Positions 42,181 through 56,129 of a stretch of 64,000 nucleotides of DNA are shown in pieces. A program made the position numbers and the translations under genes. Positions within the stretch are counted from its first letter, which is position 1. Every line of letters begins with the position of its first letter. This DNA comes from Cloacibacillus evryensis DSM 19522 (GTDB lineage: Bacteria; Synergistota; Synergistia; Synergistales; Synergistaceae), in contig NZ_KK073872.1 in assembly GCF_000585335.1 (NCBI RefSeq), positions 1,229,183 through 1,293,182 of the forward strand. The letters run 5' to 3'. A model generated the notes under the pieces. That model ran no database searches, was not told the origin of the DNA, and saw only the letters and a list, made by a program, of their open reading frames with translations.

Positions 42181-42372
42181 ACGCGTTATCCGTCCCGATA
42201 ACTTACAAACCGTGCCCGTATAAAAAACACTTAAAGATCAAAAACAAACAAATCAGGGCGAATGCGTGAACAGCGATTTGCCAAATTGAAAGTGAACGGT
42301 AAACAGCGATTTAGCGGGCATCCACAAAAAGCCGTTTGTCGATATTCAACGATTTTGGTTTAGATTTTGCCC

Positions 42373-42569
42373 TTGCCTCCCTCGCCGAGGGAGGTGGCCC
42401 GAAGGGCCGGAAGGAGTTTTGACCTTGGGTTGTGCTTTGCTCTTGATCTTATCATCTTCCGCTTCTTCCGCGGCTGTCGCCGCGGGCTCCGTTCGGCGCG
42501 AAAACCGCGCGCCAAACGGAGCAACACTCCTTCCGTCATGACGCGGAAAAACACCGCGTCATGCCACCT
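42373..42569. repeat. Interspersed hairpin-rich repeat, copy 2 (IS110 insertion target)
   Basis: A composite copy. A left part has GCCTCCCTCGCCGAGGGAGG and CCGGAAGGAG in forward sense. The right part (about 42440-42569) has the same blocks inverted: TCTTCCGCGGC, the 42500-42530 palindrome and ACACTCCTTCCG, ending GCCACCT. The sequence resumes beyond the IS at 45557 (CCCTCGGCGAGGGAGGC), so the IS110 element splits this repeat. The 190 bp between 42181 and 42372 show nothing I recognise. Confidence 0.75.
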
Positions 42570-42583
42570 CGTATAATAAGTGC

Positions 42584-42765
42584 AGTCGTTGAAGGACAGG
42601 GAAAACTCAAGAGCAATCCTGTACAATAAACGACTAACGCTGTGGACCGGTTGTGCCACGTACCGCACGACGGTTTGAGGGAGGATCCGGCCACGGCTTT
42701 TTGCTTGAATGGTGATGAGTCAGATACTGCGCGACAGTTTATATCTATCGAGGTTCCATATGCAA
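42584..42765 (+). ncRNA. Candidate bridge RNA of the IS110 element
   Basis: Three consecutive stem-loops follow the TATAAT at 42572-42577. First, a 5' stem-loop (AGTCGTT/AACGACT, 42584-42635). Second, a long stem (42639-42650 with 42687-42697) holds an internal loop. One side of that loop has TGCCAC (42654-42659), identical to the left flank of the insertion site; the other has GAGGGAGG (42677-42684), the reverse complement of CCTCCCTC at the site. Third, a loop has AGTCAG (42718-42723), identical to the element's right end next to its core, and CGAG (42749-42752), complementary to CTCG at the left junction. Order and guide logic match the target- and donor-binding loops of IS621 bridge RNA. 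The 3' end is uncertain. Confidence 0.65.
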
Positions 42766-42813
42766 AAAGACCGTGGGTTACAGCGTATCTTAATTGAGAA
42801 AGATGGTTTTATT

Positions 42814-43996
42814 ATGATCTATGTCGGCATCGACATCGCTAAGAATAAGCACGACTGTGTTATTCTCAGCGATCACGCTACTTGCCTTCGTCCTTGCTTC
42901 TCTTTGAAAAACAACTCTCAAGGCTTTGCTCTGCTAATTAATGCCATCAAAGAGGCTTGTGGCGGTGATTTCAATCATGGAGAAGTGAAAGCAGGGCTTG
43001 AAGCTACCGGACACTACGCTCACAACATAGTGGCTTTTCTAAACTCTAACGGTATTGATACCACAATATTCAATCCTTTTCTGGTAAATCAATATCGTAA
43101 ATCACGTTCCCTGCGCAAGACAAAAACCGATAAGGCTGATGCCATGCTCATCGCTGAGCTTTTGATATCGACGGCCGCAAACCCTGCAACTTCATCTTAC
43201 CACAATCAGGAAATGAAAACACTATGCAGGTATCGTTTTAGTCTCGTAAAACAGCGCAGCAAGCTCAAAGCTGACATGTCACGCTATGTCGACCTCTTAT
43301 TCCCAGAACTTGGTTCTCTAGGCTTAAACCCCACTTCCTCCTCCGTCATGGCTATGTTAAAAGAACTTCCCGGTGCATCATATATTTCTATTTGTAATAT
43401 CTCCCAGCTCACAGATACCCTCTCAAGCAGCTCTCGTGGAAGGTATGGAAAAGAAACGGCTGAACAGGTTAAAGCAATGGCGAAAGAATCCATCGCCACG
43501 GCCAATAAAGCGTTTGTCATACATAATGTCGGATACAATAGAGCAGATCTGCCTGCTAAACAAACGTATTGCAAAAATAGACGGTGAACTGAAAAACGAG
43601 GTTGAAAAATCTGGGACAAAACTTACCTCTATACCTGGAATAGGCTTTTGTATAGCTTCCGTGATATTAGCGGAAATAGGGGATATCAACCTCTTCTCAT
43701 CTGCAGACAAACTTCAGGCATTCGCGGGACTCGACCCATCCACATTCCAGTCAGGAAACTTCACGGCAAGCCACACCCACATGGTAAAACGCGGCTCTGC
43801 ATATCTGCGATGGGCGATCATGCAGGGTGCTCGCTTATGTTCTCTCAACAATCTAAAGTACAAACAATATTTGGACAAAAAAATAAAGGAAGGCAAACAC
43901 TACAATTCGGCTTTAGGACACCTATCTAAAAAACTGATAAGATTGATATTCCATTTACTGAAAGAAAATGAAGAATATGATCCAAAAGTAGCTTAG
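42814..43996 (+). pseudogene. IS110-family transposase (DEDD recombinase), frameshifted
   Basis: The N-terminal part (MIYVGIDIAKNKHDCVIL, then GLEATGHYAHNIVAFL and KTDKADAMLIAELL) has the DEDD catalytic domain acids. The C-terminal Transposase_20 part (LTSIPGIGFCIASVILAEIGDINLFSSADKLQAFAGLDPSTFQSG, with the RGSAYLRWAI serine-region) is in another frame. The shift lies near 43530-43545, after AKESIATANKAF. Restored, the protein would be about 390 residues. It may be one mutation away from activity. Confidence 0.9.
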
Positions 43997-44015
43997 CCGT
44001 AAAAAACAAGAACGG

Positions 44016-44032
44016 GACTAGAGATAAAACAT
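44016..44032. repeat. Left 17-bp direct repeat (target duplication) of the nested IS
   Basis: GACTAGAGATAAAACAT, identical to 45435-45451. The pair flanks the IS1202-like element exactly. Confidence 0.85.
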
Positions 44033-45434
44033 GTCAATAGCCAGAGAAAAAGTCACCCCAAATGGTCAAAGAAAATGTCACTATTCCTTTGAATTATGGC
44101 ATCATCCTTGGTAGTCACATTTGTAGATCTGCCCCGCCAGGGGTGGTCTGAAGCAGGTTTGTGTGGTGACACAACACCTGCTTTTTCTTTGAATCACTAT
44201 GGGTCGCTTTTTTCGGCATCTCCACCTGTTTCATCAATATAGCCCTGTCGTTACGCATGATGTATATCTCTCCTTTAACGGTCTGTCTAACTTCAACGGT
44301 GCTTCCTGGAGTCATGTATATACTGCCGTCAACCGGAATATATATCCGACTGTTGTAAGATATAGTGTTTCCGCCGCCTATCTTTCTTTCACAGCGCAGA
44401 ACAAAGACCAGATCCAGATCAATTCTCTTGTCGAATTTGAGATACACAGAGTTTTCTACTTTTGGTTCAACGGAAAATCTGGCGTTGTAATCATCCAGAA
44501 AGAGTGGGAGGAAGCTATTAGCCTCTTCAATGTTCCTGATTCCATTGAGCCTGAGTTCCGCCGCAAGCCTGTCCTGAAAAGTATTCCACAGCCGTTCTAT
44601 ACGTCCTTTAGCCTGGGGCGTATTGGCAAATATCTGCTTTATGCCTAAATCATTCAGTGCATGGCCAAAATTCGACAGGTGAATTGATACGCCTTTCAAT
44701 TCGTCTTCGAGGGTCAGCTCCTTAGGAGACTTGAATTTTCGTGTGCCTGTCGCTGTAAATATAAAGGGGCAGTCCATAATCCCTTATACCCATCTTTATA
44801 GCCTCCGCATATCCGACAAAACATTCACTCTCTATGAAGAATGCACCGGTAACAATACCTGCGGCATCGTCCATAAAAGCATGCAGGGTTGCTACTATCT
44901 CCATCTTTGCCAAACCACTTATGGCTGCTCGCGTCTGTCTGCCATAACATGCCGGACGATTCCTTCCTTTGCCTCGGACGATGTGCTTTGGGCTTTTATT
45001 TACCGACCTCTTACTCCTTATTCCCTCCAACTTCAGAATACGAGACACCGACGACCGGCTGATACTGATACATTCCCTTTCATTAAGATGTTCGGTAAAA
45101 TGAGAGATATTAAAGTCATAATACCTTTCCTTAAAAAGACTCACTACCTCCCCTCTGATCTCATCGGTAATCGCATGGACGGGATTCCTACCACGATTAC
45201 CGTGAACCAACCCTTGTGCTCCTTCCTGTAAAAACTTCTTCTTGATTCTGATAAACTGCCTGACGCAAACACCGAGCAGCTCAGACGCATCTTTGTTAGT
45301 CAATCCTCCTGATAATGCGATACTCAACACCTCAACGCGCCTTACTTCCTTCTTCGTCATTGTCACTAGCTCCTGGCTCATAGTGACATTTTCTCAGATC
45401 TGTTATGGAGTGACTTTATCTCTGAGCAATAACA
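44033..45434 (-). mobile_element. IS1202-like (ISNCY) insertion sequence inside the IS110 element
   Basis: Length 1402 bp, flanked by perfect 17-bp direct repeats. The ends carry related inverted repeats: AGAGAAAAAGTCACCCCA and AGAAAATGTCACTAT on the left match AGAGATAAAGTCACTCCA and AGAAAATGTCACTAT read inward from the right. The transposase type and the unusually long target duplication both fit the IS1202 family. It interrupts the right end of the IS110 element. Confidence 0.85.
44115..45381 (-). pseudogene. IS1202-like DDE transposase, multiple frameshifts
   Basis: The N-terminal helix-turn-helix (LSIALSGGLTNKDASELLGVCVRQFIRIKKKF) and the helical region to about residue 130 are intact. 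Near 44950-44900 the family segment MLWQTDASSHKWFGKDGD, with the first catalytic Asp, is readable only in another frame. The reading then returns to the first frame at TLHAFMDDAAG. After YSDRHTK (second Asp) another shift occurs near 44740, and the C-terminal part with KGRIERLWNTFQDR (catalytic Glu) continues from the frame of 44777. At least three frameshifts, so inactive. Confidence 0.87.
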
Positions 45435-45451
45435 GACTAGAGATAAAACAT
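45435..45451. repeat. Right 17-bp direct repeat (target duplication) of the nested IS
   Basis: GACTAGAGATAAAACAT, identical to 44016-44032. The motif AGAGATAAA also resembles the IS ends. Confidence 0.85.
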
Positions 45452-45553
45452 TGCCTTTACAGAGGCTTAGTATTACTTTGATAGTATCTGCTGTTTACAA
45501 TTATAGATACTTTCTCTTTTTTTTTGTTTAAGGGCTTGACTTAATATAGTCAG

Positions 45554-45714
45554 TCTCCCTCGGCGAGGGAGGCTTTAAAAGCATAAATCGTAAAAAATGT
45601 GCGGCTGCCACCTCTGGTGTGCCTACCAGCCGATTCGCACAAATCAGAAAAACTCTGATTTGGCTCCCTAGCCGCCTCGCCGAGGGAGGCTTTTAAAGCG
45701 TAAATCCCAGTTTA
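45554..45714. repeat. Interspersed hairpin-rich repeat, copy 3
   Basis: Begins with the right half of the repeat split by the IS110 element (CCCTCGGCGAGGGAGGC) and continues with TTTAAAAGCATAAATCG. It then holds an inverted copy of the module in copy 1 (CACCAGAGGTGG, CAGCCGA, AAATCAGAAAAACTCTGATTT). It ends with GCCGAGGGAGGCTTTTAAAGCG. No coding potential. Confidence 0.78.
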
Positions 45715-45772
45715 CCTTTCCTCTTCGATTTATCCTACTATTAGTAAAGATAGTAAAGGCAAATTACATGGT

Positions 45773-45801
45773 TTGACAAAATAGTTAGACAGTGCTAACA
45801 T
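45773..45801 (+). promoter_or_regulatory. Promoter of porin gene A
   Basis: Consensus -35 TTGACA (45773-45778), 17-bp spacer, -10 TAACAT (45796-45801). It predicts a leader of about 320 nt before the ATG at 46129. Confidence 0.65.
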
Positions 45802-45807
45802 AACCAC

Positions 45808-46128
45808 CGCCATATGTTAGCAAAGACTAACTATAGGTTATTTATCGGCGTTGTTCGGCACCTTGAAAATAGAAATTTTTACTTTATTTATATTTCGCGG
45901 CTGCCAATCGCTTAGAATCCCGTAACTTCCAAAGGCTGAAAAGAGAGGTGAAACCGGCCAGAGCCACTAAGGGTGTACGGATTTTAAGGCGGGAGAATGA
46001 TATGACGGCTGATGTCTGAGAACTAATCAAGGAAACATTGGAATCTTGAACTTGACCCGGACCAGCCCCTCACAAAAATTCTTTCGCTCTATAGAAAACT
46101 CAGAGACAACCAGGAGGGTTGCAGTGTA
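45808..46128 (+). promoter_or_regulatory. Long conserved 5' leader of porin gene A
   Basis: Shares ordered blocks with the leader of porin gene C: AAGAGAGGTGAAA (45941-), GATTTTAAGGCGG (45980-45992), CAAGGAAAC (46028-46036), TTGGA and CTTGA, then ACAACC..G.GGGTTG at the ribosome-binding site. The distances between blocks are almost equal in the two leaders (39 versus 41, then 48 and 48 nt). CAAG...CTTG can pair. No open frame of note. Probably a structured leader that stabilises or regulates an abundant envelope-protein mRNA. Confidence 0.6.
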
Positions 46129-47658
46129 ATGAAAAAAATTCTTGCAGTAATCGCAATGATCGCATCTATGGCAATGGCCGTTCCTGCAATGGCGGCGACA
46201 AATCCTTTTATGGATGTTCCGCAGGGCCATTGGGCCTATGACGCGGTAGGCCTTCTCGCTTCGCGCGGCATCGTGTCGGGATATCCTGACGGTGCATTCA
46301 AAGGCGCGCAGCCCGCGACACGTTATGAGATGGCGTCTGTGGTAGCGCGCGCCCTCGTGGCGGTCGACGCTGACAAGGCCAGCAAGCAGGATCTTGAACT
46401 CCTCAAGAAGCTCGTCATGGAATTCAAAGACGAACTCGACGCCCTCGGCGTGAAAGTCGACAAACTCGACAAGAGAGTCGCGGTCCTTGAAGACGGTGTC
46501 GGCGGATGGAAGATCCGCGGGACATTTATGTTCGACGCGAAGTTTGCCAACGACACCGACAACGGGCAATACTATTACAACGAAAGCAATAAAAAGAACG
46601 ACTTTGAAAAAGAGCAGTTCCGTCTCTATCTGACGAAGCAGATCGACGAAAACACATACTTCTACGCCGAATACCGTACTGGCGCCGACGACGCGGGAGA
46701 TGACGTCAACGGACGCGGCGACCTGCAGCACATGATGTGGTCGCATCTCTTCTTAGATACCAAGCTTCCGTACGATATCGGATTCCGCGTCGGGCGCTTC
46801 ACCGTGGACTTTGAAGAAGAATACGGCCTCTACACCGACAACGACGCCGTCTTCGGCGACTTCCGCACGGATGGCTTCCGCCTCACCAAGCAGTGGAGCA
46901 ATTTCAGGGCGACGGCGGTCGTCGGACGCAACGACAATCTTGGTATCGACGGCATGAACGACAGCGGCAGCGGTACCCACATGACATATGTGCTTGACCT
47001 CAACTGGCAGCCCGGCGAGAAGTTCTTTGCGGGCGCGACCGGCTACTGGTTCGACGACGATTCAACGCCCGACACGGCCGGCGATCTTGGAGTCAAAAAC
47101 TACGGTCTCTATGCCGGTTATAAGTTCACCCCGGCGGTCGAACTGAAGGGCATCTACTACTTCCAGGATCTTGGCAAAGACGTCTCCGGCGCGGCGTACG
47201 AAGACAGCCCGAAAGCGTGGAAAGCCGTCCTCGACGTCAAGCAGGATCTTCTCAAATTCACCGGGCTCTGGATCGAATATTCACAGCAGGACAACACCTT
47301 CCTCGGCTACAACGACCGCTATTCGATAGGCGGGGGAGCCTATGACCATGTCGGCAGAAACATGGAATACGCAAACCCTTACGGGACCTCAAAGTGGTGG
47401 TTTGTGAAAGCCGACCAGCAGTGGAACGACAAGTGGAGCACCTTCATTCGTTTCGCGAACGTCGGCTACGATACCGCGGGGCTTGACGACGCGACGGAGT
47501 GGGGCCTTGGCGTTGGTTACCAGTACACGCCCGCCATCGGTTTTGAGCTTGCCTACGACCAGGTCGACCACGGAGACAACGGCTGGGCCGTCGGTGATCC
47601 CGAAGTGGCGCGCGGCAAGGACCATGTCGTCCGCTTCCGCACGACCATCAATTTCTAA
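46129..47658 (+). CDS. SLH-domain outer-membrane porin A (OmpM type)
   Basis: A 509-residue envelope protein. The signal peptide is MKKILAVIAMIASMAMAVPAMA. One SLH domain follows (NPFMDVPQGHWAYDAVGLLASRGIVSGYPDGAFKGAQPATRYEMASVVARAL), then a coiled-coil spacer (KQDLELLKKLVMEFKDELDALGVKVDKLDKRVAVLE). The rest is a long Gly/aromatic-rich beta-barrel ending in TTINF with the C-terminal Phe used by the Bam machinery. Such proteins tether the outer membrane to peptidoglycan in Negativicutes and Synergistota. It is complete, with its own promoter and leader, unlike its two relatives at 48.6 and 51.7 kb. Confidence 0.92.
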   Translation: MKKILAVIAMIASMAMAVPAMAATNPFMDVPQGHWAYDAVGLLASRGIVSGYPDGAFKGAQPATRYEMASVVARALVAVDADKASKQDLELLKKLVMEFKDELDALGVKVDKLDKRVAVLEDGVGGWKIRGTFMFDAKFANDTDNGQYYYNESNKKNDFEKEQFRLYLTKQIDENTYFYAEYRTGADDAGDDVNGRGDLQHMMWSHLFLDTKLPYDIGFRVGRFTVDFEEEYGLYTDNDAVFGDFRTDGFRLTKQWSNFRATAVVGRNDNLGIDGMNDSGSGTHMTYVLDLNWQPGEKFFAGATGYWFDDDSTPDTAGDLGVKNYGLYAGYKFTPAVELKGIYYFQDLGKDVSGAAYEDSPKAWKAVLDVKQDLLKFTGLWIEYSQQDNTFLGYNDRYSIGGGAYDHVGRNMEYANPYGTSKWWFVKADQQWNDKWSTFIRFANVGYDTAGLDDATEWGLGVGYQYTPAIGFELAYDQVDHGDNGWAVGDPEVARGKDHVVRFRTTINF

Positions 47659-47734: not shown

Positions 47735-48499
47735 TCATTGGACCTTTGCGAGCTCGTCCAGCCTTGACTGAATGGTCGAGATCTCGCCGTTGATGGATGC
47801 GAGCTTCGCCTCTTCCTCGGCCTTGTCCTTGCGAAGCTTTTCGAGACGCTTGATCAGGCGGTCGGTCTCAATACGCGCCGCGGTCGTGCCTTGATATAAT
47901 TTTTGCGGGGCGTCGTCGGAGACATCCCAGATGAACCTTGTCGGCTGCCCTTTGGTAATTGTGGGAGCGACGGCGCTGCGCAATTCCAGCGTGACGTTTT
48001 TCACCCCTTCCAAGAGGTCCCTGCCTGTCTTTTCGTCATAACGCGGAAAATATACGAGACCTTCCTTCCTGCCCTGGAATTTAAAGTTTAACCGTTTGTC
48101 ATAGTCTACCGGTTTATAACTTTTGTTTTTTATTTGCAGTTTGACCATGATGTCAAATGGCCCCATATGCATTGTCTCGGCATTGTTATTAAATTCTATT
48201 TGAATTGGAATCATCTCGTCTAATTTTAGGGCGCTGAGGAATTTATATTTATAATCCTCGGCCTCCTGCTTAGTCCAGAGGTTTGCTTCCGCCTCTTTCT
48301 GTATATAAGCCTCTATAAACTCGGCTGAGTAGTATGTGGCCTTTATTTCGAGGTTGCTGAGCTTGTCTTCTCCCGTATACTTACGCGATTTCGTCCATCG
48401 GTCGAGAATCTGTCCAAAGCTGTCTGCGCTGGCGAACGGTATCGCCAGCAGACTCAAAAGCGCCGTGATAAGCAGGATGGGTATTATTTTTTTTCTCAA
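47735..48499 (-). CDS. Secreted coiled-coil protein, cassette paralog 1
   Basis: A 254-residue protein of unrecognised family. A signal peptide (RKKIIPILLITALLSLLAIPFASA) is followed by a soluble domain with LDEMIPIQIEFNN and FNFKFQG-like strands. The C-terminal coiled coil is Lys/Glu-rich (RLIKRLEKLRKDKAEEEAKL). The likely start is TTG 48499 behind GGAGG, matching the TTG start of its paralog at 53343, rather than ATG 48526. The two paralogs are about half identical in the middle but nearly identical over the last 45 residues. It lies downstream of porin body B, mirroring the position of the other paralog behind porin C, so it probably works with the porin at the envelope. Confidence 0.8.
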   Translation of the reverse strand: MRKKIIPILLITALLSLLAIPFASADSFGQILDRWTKSRKYTGEDKLSNLEIKATYYSAEFIEAYIQKEAEANLWTKQEAEDYKYKFLSALKLDEMIPIQIEFNNNAETMHMGPFDIMVKLQIKNKSYKPVDYDKRLNFKFQGRKEGLVYFPRYDEKTGRDLLEGVKNVTLELRSAVAPTITKGQPTRFIWDVSDDAPQKLYQGTTAARIETDRLIKRLEKLRKDKAEEEAKLASINGEISTIQSRLDELAKVQ

Positions 48500-48585
48500 A
48501 AGAGTTTCCTCCAGTCTGATTTGCATTGCTTTGATAAAGCCGGTAAAAATAGATCGATGGTTATGAGAAAGCCTGTGCTCTTAAC

Positions 48586-48615
48586 AAAACAGAGGCCCAA
48601 AGGGCCTCTGTTTTA
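48586..48615 (-). terminator. Terminator after porin body B
   Basis: AAAACAGAGGCCC-AAA-GGGCCTCTGTTTT, a perfect stem followed by Ts on the minus strand. Confidence 0.9.
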
Positions 48616-48651
48616 GAGTTGTTAATTGTTTTTGTTCAGCAGATCGTCCAA

Positions 48652-50049
48652 TTAGAAATTGATCGCTGTGCGGAACTGGAATACGTGGTCTTTGCCGTCT
48701 TTGAAATCGTCGCCATGATTAAAGATGTTGCCATCTCCATAGTCAACGCAGTCGTAGGCGAGACGGAAAGCGATGGCGGGCGTGTACTGATAAGTTACGC
48801 CAGCGCCGTAACCCTTCGCGTCATCAAGGCCGGTCGTGTCGAAATCAGCCTGCTGATAACGGAGGTAGCTGCTCCACTTGTCGTTCCATTTCTGGTCGGC
48901 ATAGATGAAGAACAACTTCGTTGTACCGTCGTTCCAAGGCATATTGTCGGAGATCGAAGCGGCGTTTGCGGAATTGACGCCGAAGCTGTAAGGATCTCTT
49001 ACGCCGTTGAAGGTATTATCCTGCTGCTGATATTCAAAGCGAAGCCCTGTGAACTTAAGCAGATCCTGTTTGACAGCAAGGGTTGCTCTCCAAGCCTTCG
49101 GGCTATCTTCAAAACCACCTGCAATCCCTTCATCGAGGTCCTGCCAGTAGTAGGTTCCCTGGAGGGCGACGGCCGGTGTGAAGTTATAGGACGCATAGAC
49201 GCTGTAGGTGTTGTAATCCATATCCTCCATGGCCGCGAGGTCGCTGTCATCCTTAACCCAAACGCCGTTGGCGCCAATAAAGAACTTTTCATTGGGCTGC
49301 CAGGTAAGGTCAAGGGCGTAGTGCATCTGAGCTGTATCATAAAGATTACCACTATTCATCACAACGTCACCAGCTCCGTTTATTCTGTAAGCAGGAGACT
49401 TGTAAGCGCCGCTGAACGTGTTGCGTCCAATAACAGCCTTCGCGGAGAAGGTGTTCCATGTCTTCGTGAACTGGAAACCGTCTACACGATAGTCGCCGTA
49501 GATGGCGTCGTTGTCGATGTAGAGATCGTGGTCGCCTTCAAAGTCGAGGAAGAAACGCCCGACGCGGTAACCTACGCCATAGGGAAGCACTGTGTCGACA
49601 TAGACCTGACGGATATTGAATCCATCGACATCTCCATAACCGCTCTTACCGCCGGAACCTTCGCTGCCCGCGCGGAACTGGGCATAGAAGCTGGTGGTGT
49701 CGCTGATCTGCTTGGTGAGCGTCAGACGGAAACGGTCTTTCTCAAAATCTGTGTCGAGTCCGTTCGATGTGTAAGCGCTTCCTGCCTGATCTCCGCCGGC
49801 GAAGTTAGCGTCAAACCAGAACTGTCCGGAGAGCTTCCATCCGCCGAGACGATCTTCAAGAACCGCAACGCGCTTGTCAATTTTGTCGACCTTCACGCCG
49901 AGTGCGTCGAGTTCGTCTTTGAATTCCATGACGAGCTTCTTGAGGAGTTCGAGATCCTGCTTGCTGGCCTTGTCAGCGTCGATCGCCACTAGGGCGCGCG
50001 CTACTACTGACGCCATCTCATAACGTGTCGCGGGCTGTGCACCCTTGAA
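48652..50049 (-). pseudogene. Silent porin cassette B: SLH-porin body without start, signal peptide or promoter
   Basis: Reads in frame from Phe at 50049 (FKGAQPATRYEMASVVARALVAIDADKASKQDLELL...) to the stop at 48652, 465 residues. It contains the last third of the SLH domain, the coiled coil and a full beta-barrel ending in RTAINF. The signal peptide and first part of the SLH domain are missing, and upstream DNA has no ribosome-binding site. The break falls exactly at the recombination-type site 50034-50057. Joined to the 56 codons of porin C upstream of the matching site, it would encode an intact 521-residue porin. I therefore see it as a stored cassette, not simple decay. Confidence 0.85.
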
Positions 50050-50057
50050 TGCACAGC
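50034..50057. other. Recombination-site candidate at the head of cassette B
   Basis: Perfect inverted arms GCTGTGCA (50034-50041) and TGCACAGC (50050-50057) around an 8-bp spacer. This is the arm-spacer-arm form of tyrosine-recombinase core sites. In the reading direction of cassette B the spacer is TTCAAGGG, identical to that at 51874-51881 in porin C, which lies in the opposite orientation. Confidence 0.7.
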
Positions 50058-50116
50058 TCCCCGTGACTGCTGCGGTGTTTTTTTACGTACTTTTGAGATG
50101 TACGACGTATGAGTAA

Positions 50117-51277
50117 TTAGTGCCGAAGCATACTGACCGCTTCCTCCAAAGAATTATGCGAAAGATGAGCATACCTTTGCGTCATGGCGATAGAGCCGTG
50201 GCACAATAATTTTTGTATTATATGAAGCGGGACCCCCTCGATCGCGAGTTGGCTTGCGAAGTCATGCCGCAGGCAGTGCCACGTGAAATTTTTTAGCCCC
50301 GCCTTATCCACCACCCTCATGAAAGGGCGCGTTATATCATTCCTCTGACTTCCGTCCGGGGCGGAAAAAATAAAGCCGCTGTCGGCTCCGCAAAATTTCT
50401 GCCAATCGGCAAGCGCCTTATAAGCCTTTTTATTCAGCGGAATGATCGCGTCCTTTCCACCCTTCATGATCTCCGCGCGCAGACTGAGAGTACGCAGCTT
50501 GAAATCAACATCTTCCCACTTAAGTCCCAGCAGAGTTCCCTTTCTGATGCCGGTGTTCAAACTTAGGACGACGGCAGGTTTCAGATAGTCCTTTCCCTGC
50601 TGTCGCTCCCTGTCGTTGAGCGCGGCCATTAAACTTACGCGTTCCTCTTTAGTTAAAAAACGTGCCACCACTTTGGAATCTGTTTGAGGCAGTTTGGGGG
50701 CCTTGAACGGAACCTCTTTGAGGAAGCCATGCTTTACGCCCCAGGATGTCACCGCCTGTAATGCCGCGATACGCCGATTGATAGTGGCGCGTTTTATCTG
50801 TCCGATATTATCCATCTGCCAGCGCTCGATACAGCCGGTTGAAAGAGAGGCGACGGGGAGATCAAGAAACTCTTTGAAAAGCCTCAAAGCTCTCAGCGTG
50901 ACCGCGCCGCTCTTTTGGTGGGAGTTGACCCACGGTTCATACGCGTCGATCAACTCTCGCAGAGTGACGCCGGAATAAACAGGCCTCTTAGGATTCATAA
51001 GAATGGCGGGGTCTACCCCTTCCAGATACAATTTCGCCAAATATTCTCTGGCGATCTTGCGTGCCGTGGCAAGATTTACAAGCGATGCGGAAATTATCTT
51101 TTTATTCTTGAGCCTCTTCTCAGGCGACGGCGTCCGATAACTTAGATACCATGTCTTTCTGCCGGAGACCTCTACGCGGAGAAACAGCCCGCGAACGAAG
51201 GTATCCCGCAGGTCGTAACGCTTGCTTCTTGGGCTTGCCTTGTCACAAACCGACTGTGTAAGATAAAGCTGTGCCAT
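50117..51277 (-). CDS. Tyrosine recombinase (phage-integrase family), probable inversion enzyme
   Basis: A 386-residue protein. The N-terminal arm-type DNA-binding domain (LRDTFVRGLFLRVEVSGRKTWYLSYR) and a SAM-like core-binding domain (VTLRELIDAYEPWVNSHQ) precede the catalytic domain. All catalytic residues are visible: Arg in NTGIRKGTLLGLKW, Lys in IMKGGKDAIIPL, HxxR in WHCLRHDFASQL, His in LLCHGSIAMTQRYAHL and the nucleophile Tyr in the same segment. Start ATG 51277 with GGAGG nine bases upstream. Intact, adjacent to the site at 50034-50057 and inside the segment that appears invertible. It could instead be the integrase of a lost element. Confidence 0.93.
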   Translation of the reverse strand: MAQLYLTQSVCDKASPRSKRYDLRDTFVRGLFLRVEVSGRKTWYLSYRTPSPEKRLKNKKIISASLVNLATARKIAREYLAKLYLEGVDPAILMNPKRPVYSGVTLRELIDAYEPWVNSHQKSGAVTLRALRLFKEFLDLPVASLSTGCIERWQMDNIGQIKRATINRRIAALQAVTSWGVKHGFLKEVPFKAPKLPQTDSKVVARFLTKEERVSLMAALNDRERQQGKDYLKPAVVLSLNTGIRKGTLLGLKWEDVDFKLRTLSLRAEIMKGGKDAIIPLNKKAYKALADWQKFCGADSGFIFSAPDGSQRNDITRPFMRVVDKAGLKNFTWHCLRHDFASQLAIEGVPLHIIQKLLCHGSIAMTQRYAHLSHNSLEEAVSMLRH

Positions 51278-51407
51278 TTTTTCAATCCTCCATTTTGTAT
51301 AAAACTGGTGTAACGAGACAAGAAAATATAACAAAATACAGACATAAAATAGCCCAAAGTCTTTTAATATGAGGCTATAGGCCCATGCCCCTATAAAAAA
51401 ATGTATG

Positions 51408-51705
51408 TATAATGCTTACAAGCGAATAGAGAAAAGTGTTCGCTGGAAAGAAGCACATTGACAATCTGGACCCCAAATAGCTTGGAATTCTGCGACGACC
51501 CTGGACGGCAAGAAAGAGAGGTGAAAACCAACCCCCAGCCAATAAAGGAGAGCAGATTTTAAGGCGGCGGCAAGGCTGAAAAGGCTGACGACAAACATAG
51601 AGCAAGGAAACTTTGGAGACTTGAGTATGGATGCCGGCAACCCCTAAAGCGGAGCTTCCGCGTAATACAAAAAACTAAAAAACAACCAAGGGGGTTGTAC
51701 AAGTA
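51408..51705 (+). promoter_or_regulatory. Promoter region and conserved leader of porin gene C
   Basis: TATAAT at 51408-51413 is a likely -10 (TG precedes it); no clear -35. The leader of about 290 nt has the same ordered blocks as that of porin A: AAGAGAGGTGAAA (51514-), GATTTTAAGGCGG (51555-51567), CAAGGAAAC (51603-51611), TTGGA, CTTGA and a closing ACAACCAAGGGGGTTG. It lies within the putative invertible segment. The 130 bp between the recombinase start and this promoter are AT-rich and may hold its divergent promoter. Confidence 0.6.
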
Positions 51706-53197
51706 ATGAAAAAGTTTATGGCAGTACTCGCAATGGTTGCCGTAGTAGCGTTCGCCGCTCCGGCACTCGCAGCAACAAACCCGTTCATGGACGTACCCCA
51801 GGGCCATTGGGCCTATGACGCGGTAGGTCTTCTCGCTTCGCGCGGAATCGTATCAGGATATCCTGACGGCGCATTCAAGGGTGCACAGCCCGCGACACGT
51901 TATGAGATGGCGTCAGTAGTAGCGCGCGCCCTCGTGGCGATCGACGCTGACAAGGCCCAGCAAGCAGGATCTCGAACTCCTCAAGAAGCTCGTCATGGAA
52001 TTCAAAGACGAACTCGACGCACTCGGCGTGAAGGTCGACAAACTCGACAAGAGAGTCGCGATTCTTGAGAAGAACCTCGGCGGGTGGAGGCTTTCAGGAA
52101 GCTTCAAGTTTGACGCCAACTTCAGCAGCGACGACAACAACTGGTATAATGAAAACGGCGCCAGCACTGAATTCCACAAGGAATGGTTCAACCTTACGCT
52201 CCAGAAGCAGATAGACGACAAAACGTCGCTCTATGCGCGTCTCCGTATGGGACAGTACGTAGCGGGCACGGGCCGCGGTGATATCAGCGGCGCTGATACA
52301 CGTTGGGACCGTATCTTTGTAGACACGAAGCTTCCCTACGATATCAACTTCCGCGTTGGACGCTGGCTTGTCGACTTTGAAGGCGACAATGGCCTCTATT
52401 GGGAATATGATTCGAACCCGATTTTCGGCAGCAAGCGTACAGACGGATTCCAGCTCAACAAAGCATGGAACGCTTTCACTGCCACCGCGGTTATCGGTCG
52501 TAACTCCACCTATGCATGGGACGGTGCGGCTGGCAATTATATGAACTACATGCTCGACCTCAACTGGAAGCCCAACGAGAAGTTCGTGCTTGGCGCGACC
52601 GGTTACTGGTTTGTAGGCGATGCCGGCCTCCCCGATGAGTTTGATATGGATGTAAATAACTATGGTATCTATGCCGGATTCAAGTTTACGCCGGCTATTG
52701 AGCTTAAGGGTATTTATTACTTCCAGAAGCTTGGAGACAACTGGGCAGTCGCGGAAGACAGCCCGAAGGCATGGAAGGCCGTCCTCGACGTGAAACAGGA
52801 AGCCCTCAAGTTCACCAGCCTCTGGCTCCAGTATGAGCAGGTCGACAACTCCTTCATGGGGCTCAATCAGCAGAACAATATGGACTGGGGTGTAGTTCCC
52901 TCGATCTCCGATAACAGGCCGGTCGGCGCGGACAGCACATCAACGTTCTGGATGATCGGCGCCACTCAGCAGTGGAACGACAAGTGGAGCACATTCCTGA
53001 AGTATGCTCAGGCTGATTACGACGAAGATTGGCTCGATGACGCGAAGAACTATACGATCGGTGTGAACTATCAGTACACACCGGCGATAGCCTTCCAGCT
53101 CACCTACGACCATATCGACTACGGTGATACAAACCCTGCCGATTACCTGAACGGAGACAACCACGTCGTCAAGTTCCGTACAACGGTCAATTTCTAA
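51706..53197 (+). pseudogene. SLH-domain porin C, currently linked to the promoter but frameshifted
   Basis: A complete gene layout: signal peptide (MKKFMAVLAMVAVVAFAAPALA), SLH domain, coiled coil and beta-barrel ending in RTTVNF. A single extra C in GGCCCAGC (CCC at 51956-51958; GGCCAGC in the otherwise matching A and B sequences) shifts the frame and gives a stop at 52068. Without it the protein is 496 residues. The change lies in the inverted repeat shared with cassette B. It may be a slipped-strand off state, a fixed mutation or a sequencing error. Confidence 0.88.
51866..51889. other. Recombination-site candidate inside porin C
   Basis: Left arm ACGGCGCA, spacer TTCAAGGG (51874-51881), right arm TGCACAGC (51882-51889). 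Spacer and right arm are identical to the site at cassette B; the left arm is imperfect. The porin A equivalent has a different spacer (TTCAAAGG) and right arm (CGCGCAGC). Confidence 0.65.
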
Positions 53198-53217: not shown

Positions 53218-53248
53218 AAACAGAGACCCGCAAGGGTCTCTGTTTTTT
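53218..53248 (+). terminator. Terminator after porin C
   Basis: CAGAGACCC-GCAA-GGGTCTCTG with T6 following. Confidence 0.92.
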
Positions 53249-53342
53249 ACGCCTTATTATTCAGGATTTATAGCTTGTTTTTTATTTTACGGATTTATCA
53301 AACATAAATCATCAATATTTTTAAAAACAGGAGGAAATAAAT

Positions 53343-54101
53343 TTGAAAAGAAGTGTAAGGATGATTTTAGCAGTCGCATGTCTGCTTATAGGACTGGCTG
53401 CCGTCGCAAACGCCGCCGCCACAGATCAGATACTGTCAAGGTGGGGCAAGAAGATAAAGTTGATCGACAGGGAGGATCAGGTATCTAATTTAGAGATAAG
53501 GGCGACATATTATTCGACGGAGTATGTTGAAGCCCTCGTGCAGAGCGAGGCTCAGAAAAACCTCTGGACCCAGCAGGAGGCCGACGAGTATAAATACAGG
53601 CTGTTGAACACCCTTCAACTGGAAGAGATGATACCGATCCGTATAGAGTTCACTAACAACGGCCCATCCATGCATCTCGGCCCATTTGACGTAATGGTCA
53701 AGCTGATGATAGGCAACAAAGAATATAAAATGGCCGATTACGACAAGAGGTTCAACTTCAAATTTCAGGGAGAGAAAGAAGGTCTCGTGTTTTTCAGAAG
53801 ATATGATGAAAAGACAGGAAAGGACCTTCTGAAAGGGGTCAAACAGGTACGCCTAATATTTTCTCCGACGATAAGCCCGATAACGGATGGCAGGCGAACG
53901 GAATTTATCTGGGACATAGCAAACGACGACCCTGCTAAGCTCTTTCAGGGAAAGGCCGCCGCGAAATATGAGACCGACCGCCTGATCAAGCGTCTCGAAA
54001 AGCTCCGCAAGGACAAGGCCGAGGAAGAGGCGAAGCTCGCCTCCATCAACGGCGAGATATCGACCATCCAGGCAAGGCTGGACGAGCTCGCGAAACAGTA
54101 A
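53343..54101 (+). CDS. Secreted coiled-coil protein, cassette paralog 2
   Basis: A 252-residue paralog of the protein at 47735-48499. It starts at TTG 53343 behind AGGAGG, with a signal peptide ending near VANAAA. It shares the motifs LDR/LSNLEI.ATYYS, LEEMIPI.IEF, GPFD.MVKL and YDEKTG.DLL.GVK with paralog 1. The C-terminal coiled coil (ETDRLIKRLEKLRKDKAEEEAKLASINGEISTIQ) is almost the same DNA as in paralog 1, suggesting recent gene conversion. It follows porin C as paralog 1 follows porin body B. Family and function unrecognised; an envelope role is inferred from the signal peptide and neighbours. Confidence 0.82.
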   Translation: MKRSVRMILAVACLLIGLAAVANAAATDQILSRWGKKIKLIDREDQVSNLEIRATYYSTEYVEALVQSEAQKNLWTQQEADEYKYRLLNTLQLEEMIPIRIEFTNNGPSMHLGPFDVMVKLMIGNKEYKMADYDKRFNFKFQGEKEGLVFFRRYDEKTGKDLLKGVKQVRLIFSPTISPITDGRRTEFIWDIANDDPAKLFQGKAAAKYETDRLIKRLEKLRKDKAEEEAKLASINGEISTIQARLDELAKQ

Positions 54102-55617: not shown

Positions 55618-55866
55618 ATGTTGAATACCAACATCACAAATTTCCGAAAAAATATCTTCATGCTTCTTGAGCAGACAATAAAATATAACGAACCTGTCAA
55701 CATCAGCACCAAGGACGGAAATGCGGTGATCCTCAGCGAGGAAGATTACAATGGACTCATGGAGACATTGTACCTCTCATCGATCCCAGGCATGAAAGAG
55801 AAGATCGTAGAGGGGCTCAACACTCCGTTGGAAGATTGTATTGCCGAAGATAAAGTGTCATGGTAG
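55618..55866 (+). CDS. Phd/YefM-family antitoxin
   Basis: An 82-residue protein: N-terminal Phd/YefM fold (NTNITNFRKNIFMLLEQTIKYNEPVNISTKDGNAVILSEEDYNGLMETLYLSSIPGM) followed by an acidic toxin-binding tail. Preceded by AAGGGGGGG. Overlaps the toxin start by 7 bp. Neutralises the toxin and represses the shared promoter. Base composition is lower in G+C than the core genes. Confidence 0.92.
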   Translation: MLNTNITNFRKNIFMLLEQTIKYNEPVNISTKDGNAVILSEEDYNGLMETLYLSSIPGMKEKIVEGLNTPLEDCIAEDKVSW

Positions 55867-56129
55867 GGTATTCTATCGTCTATACGAAAAAAGCGGCGGC
55901 TGATATACCTAATTTAAAGGCATCCGGATTGGAGTTCAAAGCCCGCGCCCTGATAGATATTATCAGAATCAACCCGTTTCAGTCTCCGCCGCCGTATGAG
56001 AAACTCGTCGGCGGTATGCGGGGAGCTTATTCCAGGCGCATCAATATCAAGCATCGTCTGGTATACGAAGTGAACGAAGAGAACAGAACGGTAAAAATCA
56101 TCAGTATGTGGTCTCATTACGAGTTTTAA
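55860..56129 (+). CDS. YoeB/Txe-family toxin (mRNA interferase)
   Basis: An 89-residue RelE-superfamily toxin with the YoeB/Txe signature: YTKKAAADIPNLKASGLEFKARALIDIIRINPFQSPPPYEKLVGGMRGAYSRRINIKHRLVYEV and the C-terminal ISMWSHYEF (MW-x-HYE; catalytic His and aromatic residues at the end). Cleaves ribosome-associated mRNA. Paired with the Phd/YefM-type antitoxin just upstream. Confidence 0.93.
   Translation: MVGYSIVYTKKAAADIPNLKASGLEFKARALIDIIRINPFQSPPPYEKLVGGMRGAYSRRINIKHRLVYEVNEENRTVKIISMWSHYEF

What the first reader, a model, noticed from the sequence alone, without database searches (positions are those of the whole stretch)
48652..53197. Recombinase-driven inversion switch for outer-membrane porins
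A 1.84-kb segment (50042-51881) holds an intact tyrosine recombinase and an outward-facing promoter, long leader, signal peptide and start of an SLH domain. Both ends lie in inverted copies of porin coding sequence (about 172 bp, one substitution and one indel). To the left is a porin body with no start, signal peptide or promoter, reading left; to the right is a second porin body, reading right. The break in the left gene falls exactly at the inverted repeat. Joining the 56 codons upstream of the right site to the left body gives an in-frame 521-residue porin. The known parallel is promoter inversion of Campylobacter fetus S-layer genes, but here the recombinase would travel inside the switch and the OMP is an OmpM-type tether. 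The inversion itself is inference.
Basis: partly seen in the sequence, partly recalled or inferred. Interest (0 to 1): 0.95.

Follow-up and report, generated by a model that had tools for sequence, protein, structure and literature searches.

The report
Recombinase-driven shuffling of anchored porin genes
This bacterium carries one porin "front end" (predicted export signal plus start of a cell-wall anchor) on a short DNA segment together with a recombinase gene, between two porin gene bodies, and the recombinase likely flips the segment so that the cell could change which outer-membrane pore it makes; a relative carries six such bodies, and the same bodies are found behind different front ends in other sources.

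Summary
A 1.84-kb segment (50042-51881) carries a tyrosine recombinase and the 5' end of an SLH-porin gene between inverted sites. The left porin body has no head; the right gene has the head, but a 1-nt insertion breaks its frame near 51957. Six other genomes of the family hold an orthologous recombinase and porin bodies that start at the same place in the same site (one G010 site differs by a base). A same-genus genome has six modules at the orthologous locus. The site pattern occurs in 6 of 185 phylum genomes, all with the recombinase. Pairings differ between sources: the window's silent left body is orthologous to the body behind the head in the relative, its right body to a headless one there; database proteins show the recombinase-side flank fused to a right-type barrel, and one stub fused to left and right bodies. 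The known kind is a shufflon. What differs is a mobile head-plus-recombinase cassette whose junction lies inside the SLH domain of an OmpM-like porin. Flipping within a culture, recombinase activity, promoter and expression are untested. New variant of a known kind.

The parts
50033..50058 (-). R site (recombinase side): left arm 50050-50058, 8-nt spacer TTCAAGGG 50042-50049, right arm TGCACAGCC 50033-50041; the arms are an inverted repeat in 8 of 9 positions
51865..51890 (+). H site (head side): same spacer (51874-51881) and right arm, degenerate left arm (6 of 9)
49801..50052 (-). left arm of the inverted repeat (first ~172 nt nearly identical)
51871..52123 (+). right arm of the inverted repeat
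50117..51334 (-). tyrosine recombinase, 405 aa from TTG; likely start nearer 51277 because its two closest database copies are 386 aa
51458..51705 (+). leader conserved among switch heads, from about a TTGACA; inferred to hold the promoter
51706..51873 (+). constant head: start codon, predicted signal peptide (by eye), first part of the SLH domain (56 codons)
51874..53197 (+). right porin body, behind the head; 1-nt insertion near 51957 breaks the frame in this assembly
48652..50049 (-). left porin body, headless, behind the R site
47735..48526 (-). partner gene (263 aa) downstream of the left body; a similar gene follows each of the six bodies in G001
53343..54101 (+). partner gene (252 aa) downstream of the right body

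Best explanation
A 1.84-kb cassette that holds a tyrosine recombinase and the 5' end of an SLH-porin gene lies between two inverted copies of one site, and the recombinase is predicted to flip it, so that the one head would be joined to either of two porin barrels. Strand exchange is placed in the 8-nt spacer TTCAARGG, which codes for residues at the junction of head and body, so each flip would keep the reading frame. The body at the head side would be exported and anchored; the body at the recombinase side lacks the head and would stay silent. In relatives with more bodies, successive inversions between sites would bring further barrels behind the head, as in a shufflon. SHOWN: anatomy, site identity, co-occurrence of site and recombinase, different body-to-context pairings between genomes and database proteins. 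INFERRED: that this recombinase does it, that it happens within a culture, the promoter, and the benefit (changing surface loops, which would alter phage or antibody recognition or permeability).
For: (1) Besides the window, six of 60 relatives searched carry an orthologous recombinase (50-85% identity). Both ends of the cassette are seen with their two sites in inverted orientation in the window, G001, G020, G010, G007 and G014 (G014's R-side body is cut by a contig end; G028's head side is not in the contig). Site-to-site length is 1.8 kb in the window, G001, G020 and G010, 2.3 kb in G014, 4.7 kb in G007. (2) The headless bodies begin at gca|TTCAARGG, except G010 R (spacer one base different) and G007 R (aca before the spacer), preceded by unrelated, often AT-rich DNA. 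(3) The site pattern hits 6 of 185 Synergistota genomes (the window's included), 21 sites, none for the reversed control pattern; all 6 are among the 8 genomes with a recombinase at E<=1e-80 (5e-10 if genomes were independent, which they are not). (4) The G001 locus is orthologous by both flanks and has six body+partner modules; window left body is closest to the G001 body behind the head (83% nt; 76% to the body at G001's R site), window right body to a headless G001 body (83%). (5) Junction exchange in database proteins: the window's recombinase-side flank fused to a right-type body (P0113, 97% over the divergent part) and to two other bodies (P0107, P0073); stub MLFFLL(F/I)ICTNISLLA fused to the left body (P0001, 100%), right-type bodies (P0123 98%, P0120 97%) and a third (P0087); a head identical to the window's, over the 47-56 residues present, fused to six bodies. 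(6) The seven switch recombinases form one group at 100/99 support among 28 rows. (7) Barrel diversity lies mainly in the loops on the outer side of a predicted 18-strand barrel.
Against: No reads or PCR show both orientations in one culture. The exact product head + this left body (90% or more) was not listed as its own cluster; the nearest is P0003, 82% in the barrel part. Database junctions come largely from short contigs, where repeats can create assembly chimeras. The arms share ~172 nt, enough for homologous recombination. Spacers are not always alike within a genome: G010's R and H sites differ by one base, and in draft G028 (6% contamination) the R site has TTCAAAGG and another site TTCAAGGG. 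Arm symmetry does not mark the H sites: they score 4-6 of 9, and two standalone porins of the window's genome score 5 of 9. The recombinase ends 17 residues after the catalytic tyrosine, so it lacks the extra C-terminal domain credited with directing Rci to inversion. With two very divergent rows included, the tree needs two changes for the switch group.
Confidence: 0.86

Rival explanations
1. Rearrangement by general (RecA-type) homologous recombination across the ~172-nt inverted arms and the conserved 5' block of the bodies; the recombinase gene is only a passenger.
For: Arms are long and nearly identical; the first ~70 residues of the bodies are highly conserved (mean entropy 0.28 for residues 57-125 in 46 aligned porins); spacers differ within G010 and within draft G028.
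Against: Similarity between contexts stops at the same place in genomes of five genus labels, next to a tyrosine-recombinase-like site; site and recombinase co-occur; the recombinase stays intact and linked in seven genomes.
Confidence: 0.08
2. Frozen relic: an integrative element once inserted in a porin gene and split it, and nothing moves now.
For: The recombinase belongs to the integrase family with an Arm-DNA-bind_3 domain; the right gene is frameshifted in this genome.
Against: Besides recombinase and head, no ORF over 94 aa lies in the segment; recombinase plus head between inverted sites is kept across genus labels; bodies have different contexts in G000 and G001 and in database proteins.
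Confidence: 0.04
3. Assembly artefact at repeats.
For: Four of seven sites in draft G014 lie within 40 nt of a contig end, so this locus is hard to assemble.
Against: G000 and G001 are each a single contig of 3.49 and 3.59 Mb with conserved flanks on both sides of the locus, and show different pairings.
Confidence: 0.02

Closest known systems
R64-type shufflon (Rci invertase, sfx sites, pilV)
   Same: Constant N-terminal part, exchangeable C-terminal parts (in part recalled); tyrosine recombinase; sites with conserved core and right arm and a variable left arm (passages of PMC11852207).
   Different: Here the target is an outer-membrane porin; the recombinase and the head lie together on the flipping segment; spacer 8 nt rather than 7; no extra C-terminal domain; the R site is nearly symmetric in five genomes.
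Bacteroides fragilis SusC/SusD shufflon-type inversions (Tsr0667)
   Same: Multiple inversions by a DNA invertase at outer-membrane protein genes in a gut anaerobe (passages of PMC4747536).
   Different: There one master invertase acts on several distant regions; here recombinase, leader and head form one local cassette, and the N-terminal anchor is shared.
Dichelobacter nodosus omp1 multiple site-specific inversion
   Same: One 5' end placed in front of several outer-membrane protein genes (title seen in the reference list of PMC5903667; the rest recalled).
   Different: As recalled, the invertase is not part of the flipping segment and the protein is not an SLH tether.
Salmonella Hin flagellar switch
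   Same: Recombinase and outward promoter inside the flipping segment (recalled).
   Different: Hin is a serine recombinase and flips a promoter only (recalled); here coding sequence would be exchanged inside a protein.
OmpM, SLH-domain outer-membrane tether porin (Veillonella)
   Same: N-terminal SLH domain, linker, C-terminal barrel (passages of PMC10628300; OmpM1 entries 8bys, 8bym and 8byt among the fold matches).
   Different: The term 'phase variation' does not occur in that paper's main text; here the barrel would be exchangeable under a constant anchor.

Membership tests
tyrosine recombinase family | integrase catalytic domain with R, K, H-R, H and Y | tested here: met
   PF00589 E 1.4e-32; R264, K294, H353/R356, H379, Y388 aligned to XerC-like and XerA structures
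shufflon (multiple inversion system) | several copies of one site in both orientations around exchangeable segments | tested here: met
   six sites in both orientations in G001 (one search's pattern misses its R site and counts five), seven over several contigs in G014; the window itself has two
shufflon (multiple inversion system) | constant N-terminus with exchangeable C-termini, frame kept | tested here: met
   identical head on six bodies, same body on several contexts; in the window the right body is out of frame by its own indel
shufflon (multiple inversion system) | switching observed within a clone | not testable with these tools
   no reads available
R64/Rci subtype | extra C-terminal domain after the catalytic domain | tested here: not met
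   17 residues follow Y388
R64/Rci subtype | asymmetric sites (conserved core and right arm, variable left arm) | tested here: inconclusive
   H sites 4-6 of 9, S sites of G001, G014 and G028 3-4 of 9; but R sites 7-8 of 9 symmetric in five genomes, and G007 S sites 7 of 9
OmpM-type tether porin | SLH domain plus outer-membrane barrel | tested here: met
   Pfam SLH; AlphaFold2 model of relative P0003 with 18 strands, pLDDT 79, PDB matches to MOMP and, lower, OmpM1
OmpM-type tether porin | binds peptidoglycan and tethers the outer membrane | not testable with these tools
   needs biochemistry
Campylobacter fetus S-layer inversion | the switched genes code for S-layer proteins (feature recalled) | tested here: not met
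   the encoded proteins are barrel porins by model and fold search; the resemblance in mechanism remains

The most novel reading that the evidence does not exclude
A travelling-head shufflon: one self-contained cassette (recombinase, promoter, leader, signal peptide, most of the SLH anchor) docks onto any of up to six or more silent barrel modules through an in-frame site cut into the SLH domain, so that these Synergistota vary the pore and its surface loops while never losing the peptidoglycan tether.
Probability: 0.75. Interest if true: 0.8.

Novelty: new variant of a known kind. Interest (0 to 1): 0.74.

Why it matters
OmpM-type proteins couple outer-membrane tethering to nutrient uptake, so a switch that swaps the barrel but keeps the anchor shows how a cell could vary an important, surface-exposed protein. 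It would be a programmed surface-variation system in Synergistota; the open-access searches made here found no description of one (the last with only 15 of 3,293 papers listed), though PMC5903667 reports an inversion signature in one of two Synergistetes species without naming it in the text. It also offers a compact recombinase with an in-frame site whose relatives and sites are now listed, so it can be tested directly.

Tried and rejected
Searches that led nowhere: the genome-contig scan for the recombinase gave 25 relatives of at most 36% identity, none used; viral-contig scans with the site found 0, and with the recombinase 2 weak matches of 32-33%. Rfam gave nothing above gathering score and nothing in the leader. 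The leader folds no better than shuffles (z -0.19), so a structured leader RNA was dropped. G168 has a 41% recombinase with no porin in the 4.1 kb fetched and no site; it was kept as a negative. The first tree (30 rows, a part of the matches) split the switch group, two rows being very long; rows L008 and L036 were dropped for (28 rows). Of 156 protein records (154 hits and two translations of the window), 93 showed an SLH head, 16 a non-head stretch before the site (one of these, P0141, is a head missed by my filter) and 47 no site by my motif, some of them full-length porins with another sequence there. The tool listed only the best 120 of 426 and of 337 hits. In one search the G010 R row is out of register by one base and was ignored. 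The idea that a synonymous GGT alone marks switch sites was dropped: a few non-switch porins also have it. Searches were literature look-ups; one search gave nothing useful on Campylobacter fetus, so that parallel rests on recall.
Full report
WHAT IS THERE. The window lies in a single-contig genome of 3,488,464 bases. Several close protein hits carry the names Cloacibacillus or Synergistaceae; I take the organism as a Cloacibacillus-like member of Synergistota (inference). Between 50042 and 51881 lies a segment with a tyrosine recombinase reading left (50117-51334) and, reading right, a leader and the first 56 codons of an SLH porin. Both ends lie in inverted copies of porin coding sequence: 49801-50052 against 51871-52123, of which about the first 172 nt differ by one substitution and one indel. 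To the left a porin body reads left without a head (48652-50049); to the right a second body follows the head. The indel breaks the frame of the right gene, which appears as ORFs of 120 and 400 aa; intact relatives of this body exist at 97-98% identity, so this may be a recent mutation or a sequence error. A third SLH porin with its own head stands beside it (46129-47658).

THE SITE. Read in the direction of the porin, the junction is gca|TTCAARGG|TGCNCAGC in most copies; exceptions are both G010 sites, one base in the right arm of G001 R, and the bases before the spacer in G007 R. The recombinase-side copy is a dyad: AGCTGTGCA-TTCAAGGG-TGCACAGCC in the window (8 of 9 arm positions), 8 of 9 in G020 and G014, 7 of 9 in G001 and G028, but only 5 of 9 in G007. 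That is the layout of a tyrosine-recombinase core site, two inverted arms about an 8-nt spacer. Head-side copies match in 4-6 of 9 arm positions, no better than two standalone porins of this genome (5 of 9); the other copies match in 3-4 of 9, except in G007 (7 of 9). Spacers agree within the window, G001, G020, G014 and G007, but differ by one base within G010 and between two contigs of draft G028. The spacer falls inside the SLH domain (Pfam SLH covers residues 26-69; the site is at residue 56), and an exchange there keeps the frame.

RELATIVES. A search of 60 relatives found orthologs of the recombinase at 50-85% identity in six genomes besides the window's. Over 185 genomes of the phylum 8 pass E<=1e-80, the eighth (G168, 41%) having no porin within the 4.1 kb fetched. 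The site pattern occurs in 6 of 185 genomes, 21 sites, none for the reversed control, all in recombinase carriers; G010 carries a variant site and is missed by the pattern, as is the R site of G001. If genomes were independent, six of six falling among eight of 185 would have a chance of 5e-10, but they are related, so the real strength is less. The seven linked recombinases form one group at 100/99 support among 28 rows; the earlier 30-row tree with two very long rows needed two changes. In the same-genus genome G001 the locus is orthologous by both flanks (window to 42181 = G001 to 1369226; window from 56272 = G001 from 1387369; about 85% identity) but holds six modules, each a porin body followed by a partner gene of about 250 codons. 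Only one of the six has a head.

EXCHANGE. With the first 210 nt of each body left out, the window's left body (silent, at the R site) is closest to the G001 body that stands behind the head (83% nt, against 76% for the body at G001's R site), and the window's right body (behind the head) is closest to a headless G001 body (83%). Since the flanks are about 85% identical, 83% is near the level of orthologs. So the two genomes have different pairings, with similarity for the right module beginning at the site (51871 = 1369380). Database proteins show the same at closer range. The window's recombinase-side flank, translated, is fused in P0113 to a right-type body (97% over the 375-residue divergent part) and in P0107 and P0073 to other bodies; the flank differs from the window's by one residue (a stop here) in P0113 and P0073 and by three in P0107. 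The stub MLFFLL(F/I)ICTNISLLA is fused to the left body in P0001 (100%), to right-type bodies in P0123 (98%) and P0120 (97%) and to a third in P0087. A head identical to the window's, over the 47-56 residues present, is fused to bodies 82%, 77%, 75% and 75% like the left one, 91% like the right one and 76% like the neighbouring porin. What was not found: a cluster with this head and a body 90% or more like the left one. Clusters are made at 90% identity, so such a protein could lie inside P0001's 96 members, but it was not seen.

WHAT IS EXCHANGED. A model of P0003, a natural full-length relative, has 18 barrel strands (mean pLDDT 79; the head is poorly predicted) and matches MOMP best and, at rank 38 and below, OmpM1 of Veillonella. 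Over 46 aligned porins, mean column entropy of the nine loops after odd strands is 0.84-3.05 and they hold 111 insertion columns; the eight turns after even strands have 0.15-1.79 and 2 insertion columns. In even-stranded porins with both ends in the periplasm the odd loops face outward (established topology), so the exchanged parts would differ mainly at the surface.

MECHANISM (inferred). The recombinase is predicted to bind the sites and exchange strands in the spacer. In the window one inversion of the 1.84-kb cassette would trade the left for the right body. In G001 inversions among six sites in both orientations would reach the others. Because the R context, recombinase, leader and head lie on one piece between two sites, exchange at the sites would not part them; they form the constant cassette, 1.8 kb from site to site in the window, G001, G020 and G010, 2.3 kb in G014 and 4.7 kb in G007. 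The leader is shared with two standalone porins of this genome, and similarity to L077, G020, G014 and G010 begins at or within 6 nt of TTGACA 51458, so I place the promoter there, although the consensus scan finds none.

COMPARISON. By logic this is a shufflon: a constant N-terminus with exchangeable C-termini (R64 pilV; passages of PMC11852207). It is not an Rci-type enzyme by the one feature tested, since it ends 17 residues after the tyrosine. Bacteroides SusC/SusD inversions (passages of PMC4747536) and Dichelobacter omp1 (title only, in the references of PMC5903667) are the nearest outer-membrane cases that I met. Searches of the open-access library for Cloacibacillus with invertible (0 papers), with genome and phase variation (0 papers), for Synergistetes with porin and S-layer homology (1 paper, listing seen), for invertons with Synergist- (5 papers, listing seen) and for two of Cloacibacillus, recombinase, outer membrane (15 of 3,293 listed) showed no description of this system; preprints and most subscription journals are not in that library. 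PMC5903667 (sections 12 and 13 read) reports an inversion signature in one of two Synergistetes species without naming it in the text; its table could not be read here, so this locus may have been flagged there.

VERDICT. Observation confirmed except for the promoter, interpretation supported and extended. Remaining doubts: whether the recombinase acts, whether it acts now in this strain, and what is gained.

Noticed in passing
window 51957 region: A 1-nt insertion relative to the sister copy breaks the right porin's frame; database relatives of the same body are intact, so the 'on' gene of this assembly would be off.
   Followed up: partly
L077 4980-6527 (G000:C1:1112979-1114526): An unlinked intact porin beside an rpoB-like gene (name recalled) has a leader and head 98.8% identical over 505 nt to the switch cassette, with a one-base-different site; all six porin matches of the relative G001 lie in the switch locus, so this looks like a recent copy of head plus body.
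   Followed up: partly
window 47735-48526 and 53343-54101: Paralogous genes follow each body, and each of six bodies in G001; no Pfam match for the two in the window. Possible partner proteins of the porins.
   Followed up: partly
window 48588-48620 and 53218-53250: Similar GC-rich hairpins with T-runs follow both porin bodies (seen by eye; not listed by the terminator scan), as if each module carried its own terminator before the partner gene.
   Followed up: no
window 51458-51705: A ~250-nt porin leader is conserved across genus labels without Rfam match or unusual folding energy; a candidate regulatory leader.
   Followed up: partly
window 44115-45381: What looks like a transposase split in two overlapping frames beside the locus, in a stretch (42182-46094) with no listed similarity to the G001 region.
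   Followed up: no
window 55618-56129: Small gene pair that looks like a YefM/YoeB-type toxin-antitoxin (recalled, no search run).
   Followed up: no
G014 contigs C16, C17, C20, C22 (L072, L110, L111, L112): Four of seven sites lie within 40 nt of a contig end, as expected if the site joins several partners in the sequenced population, or simply because it is repeated.
   Followed up: no
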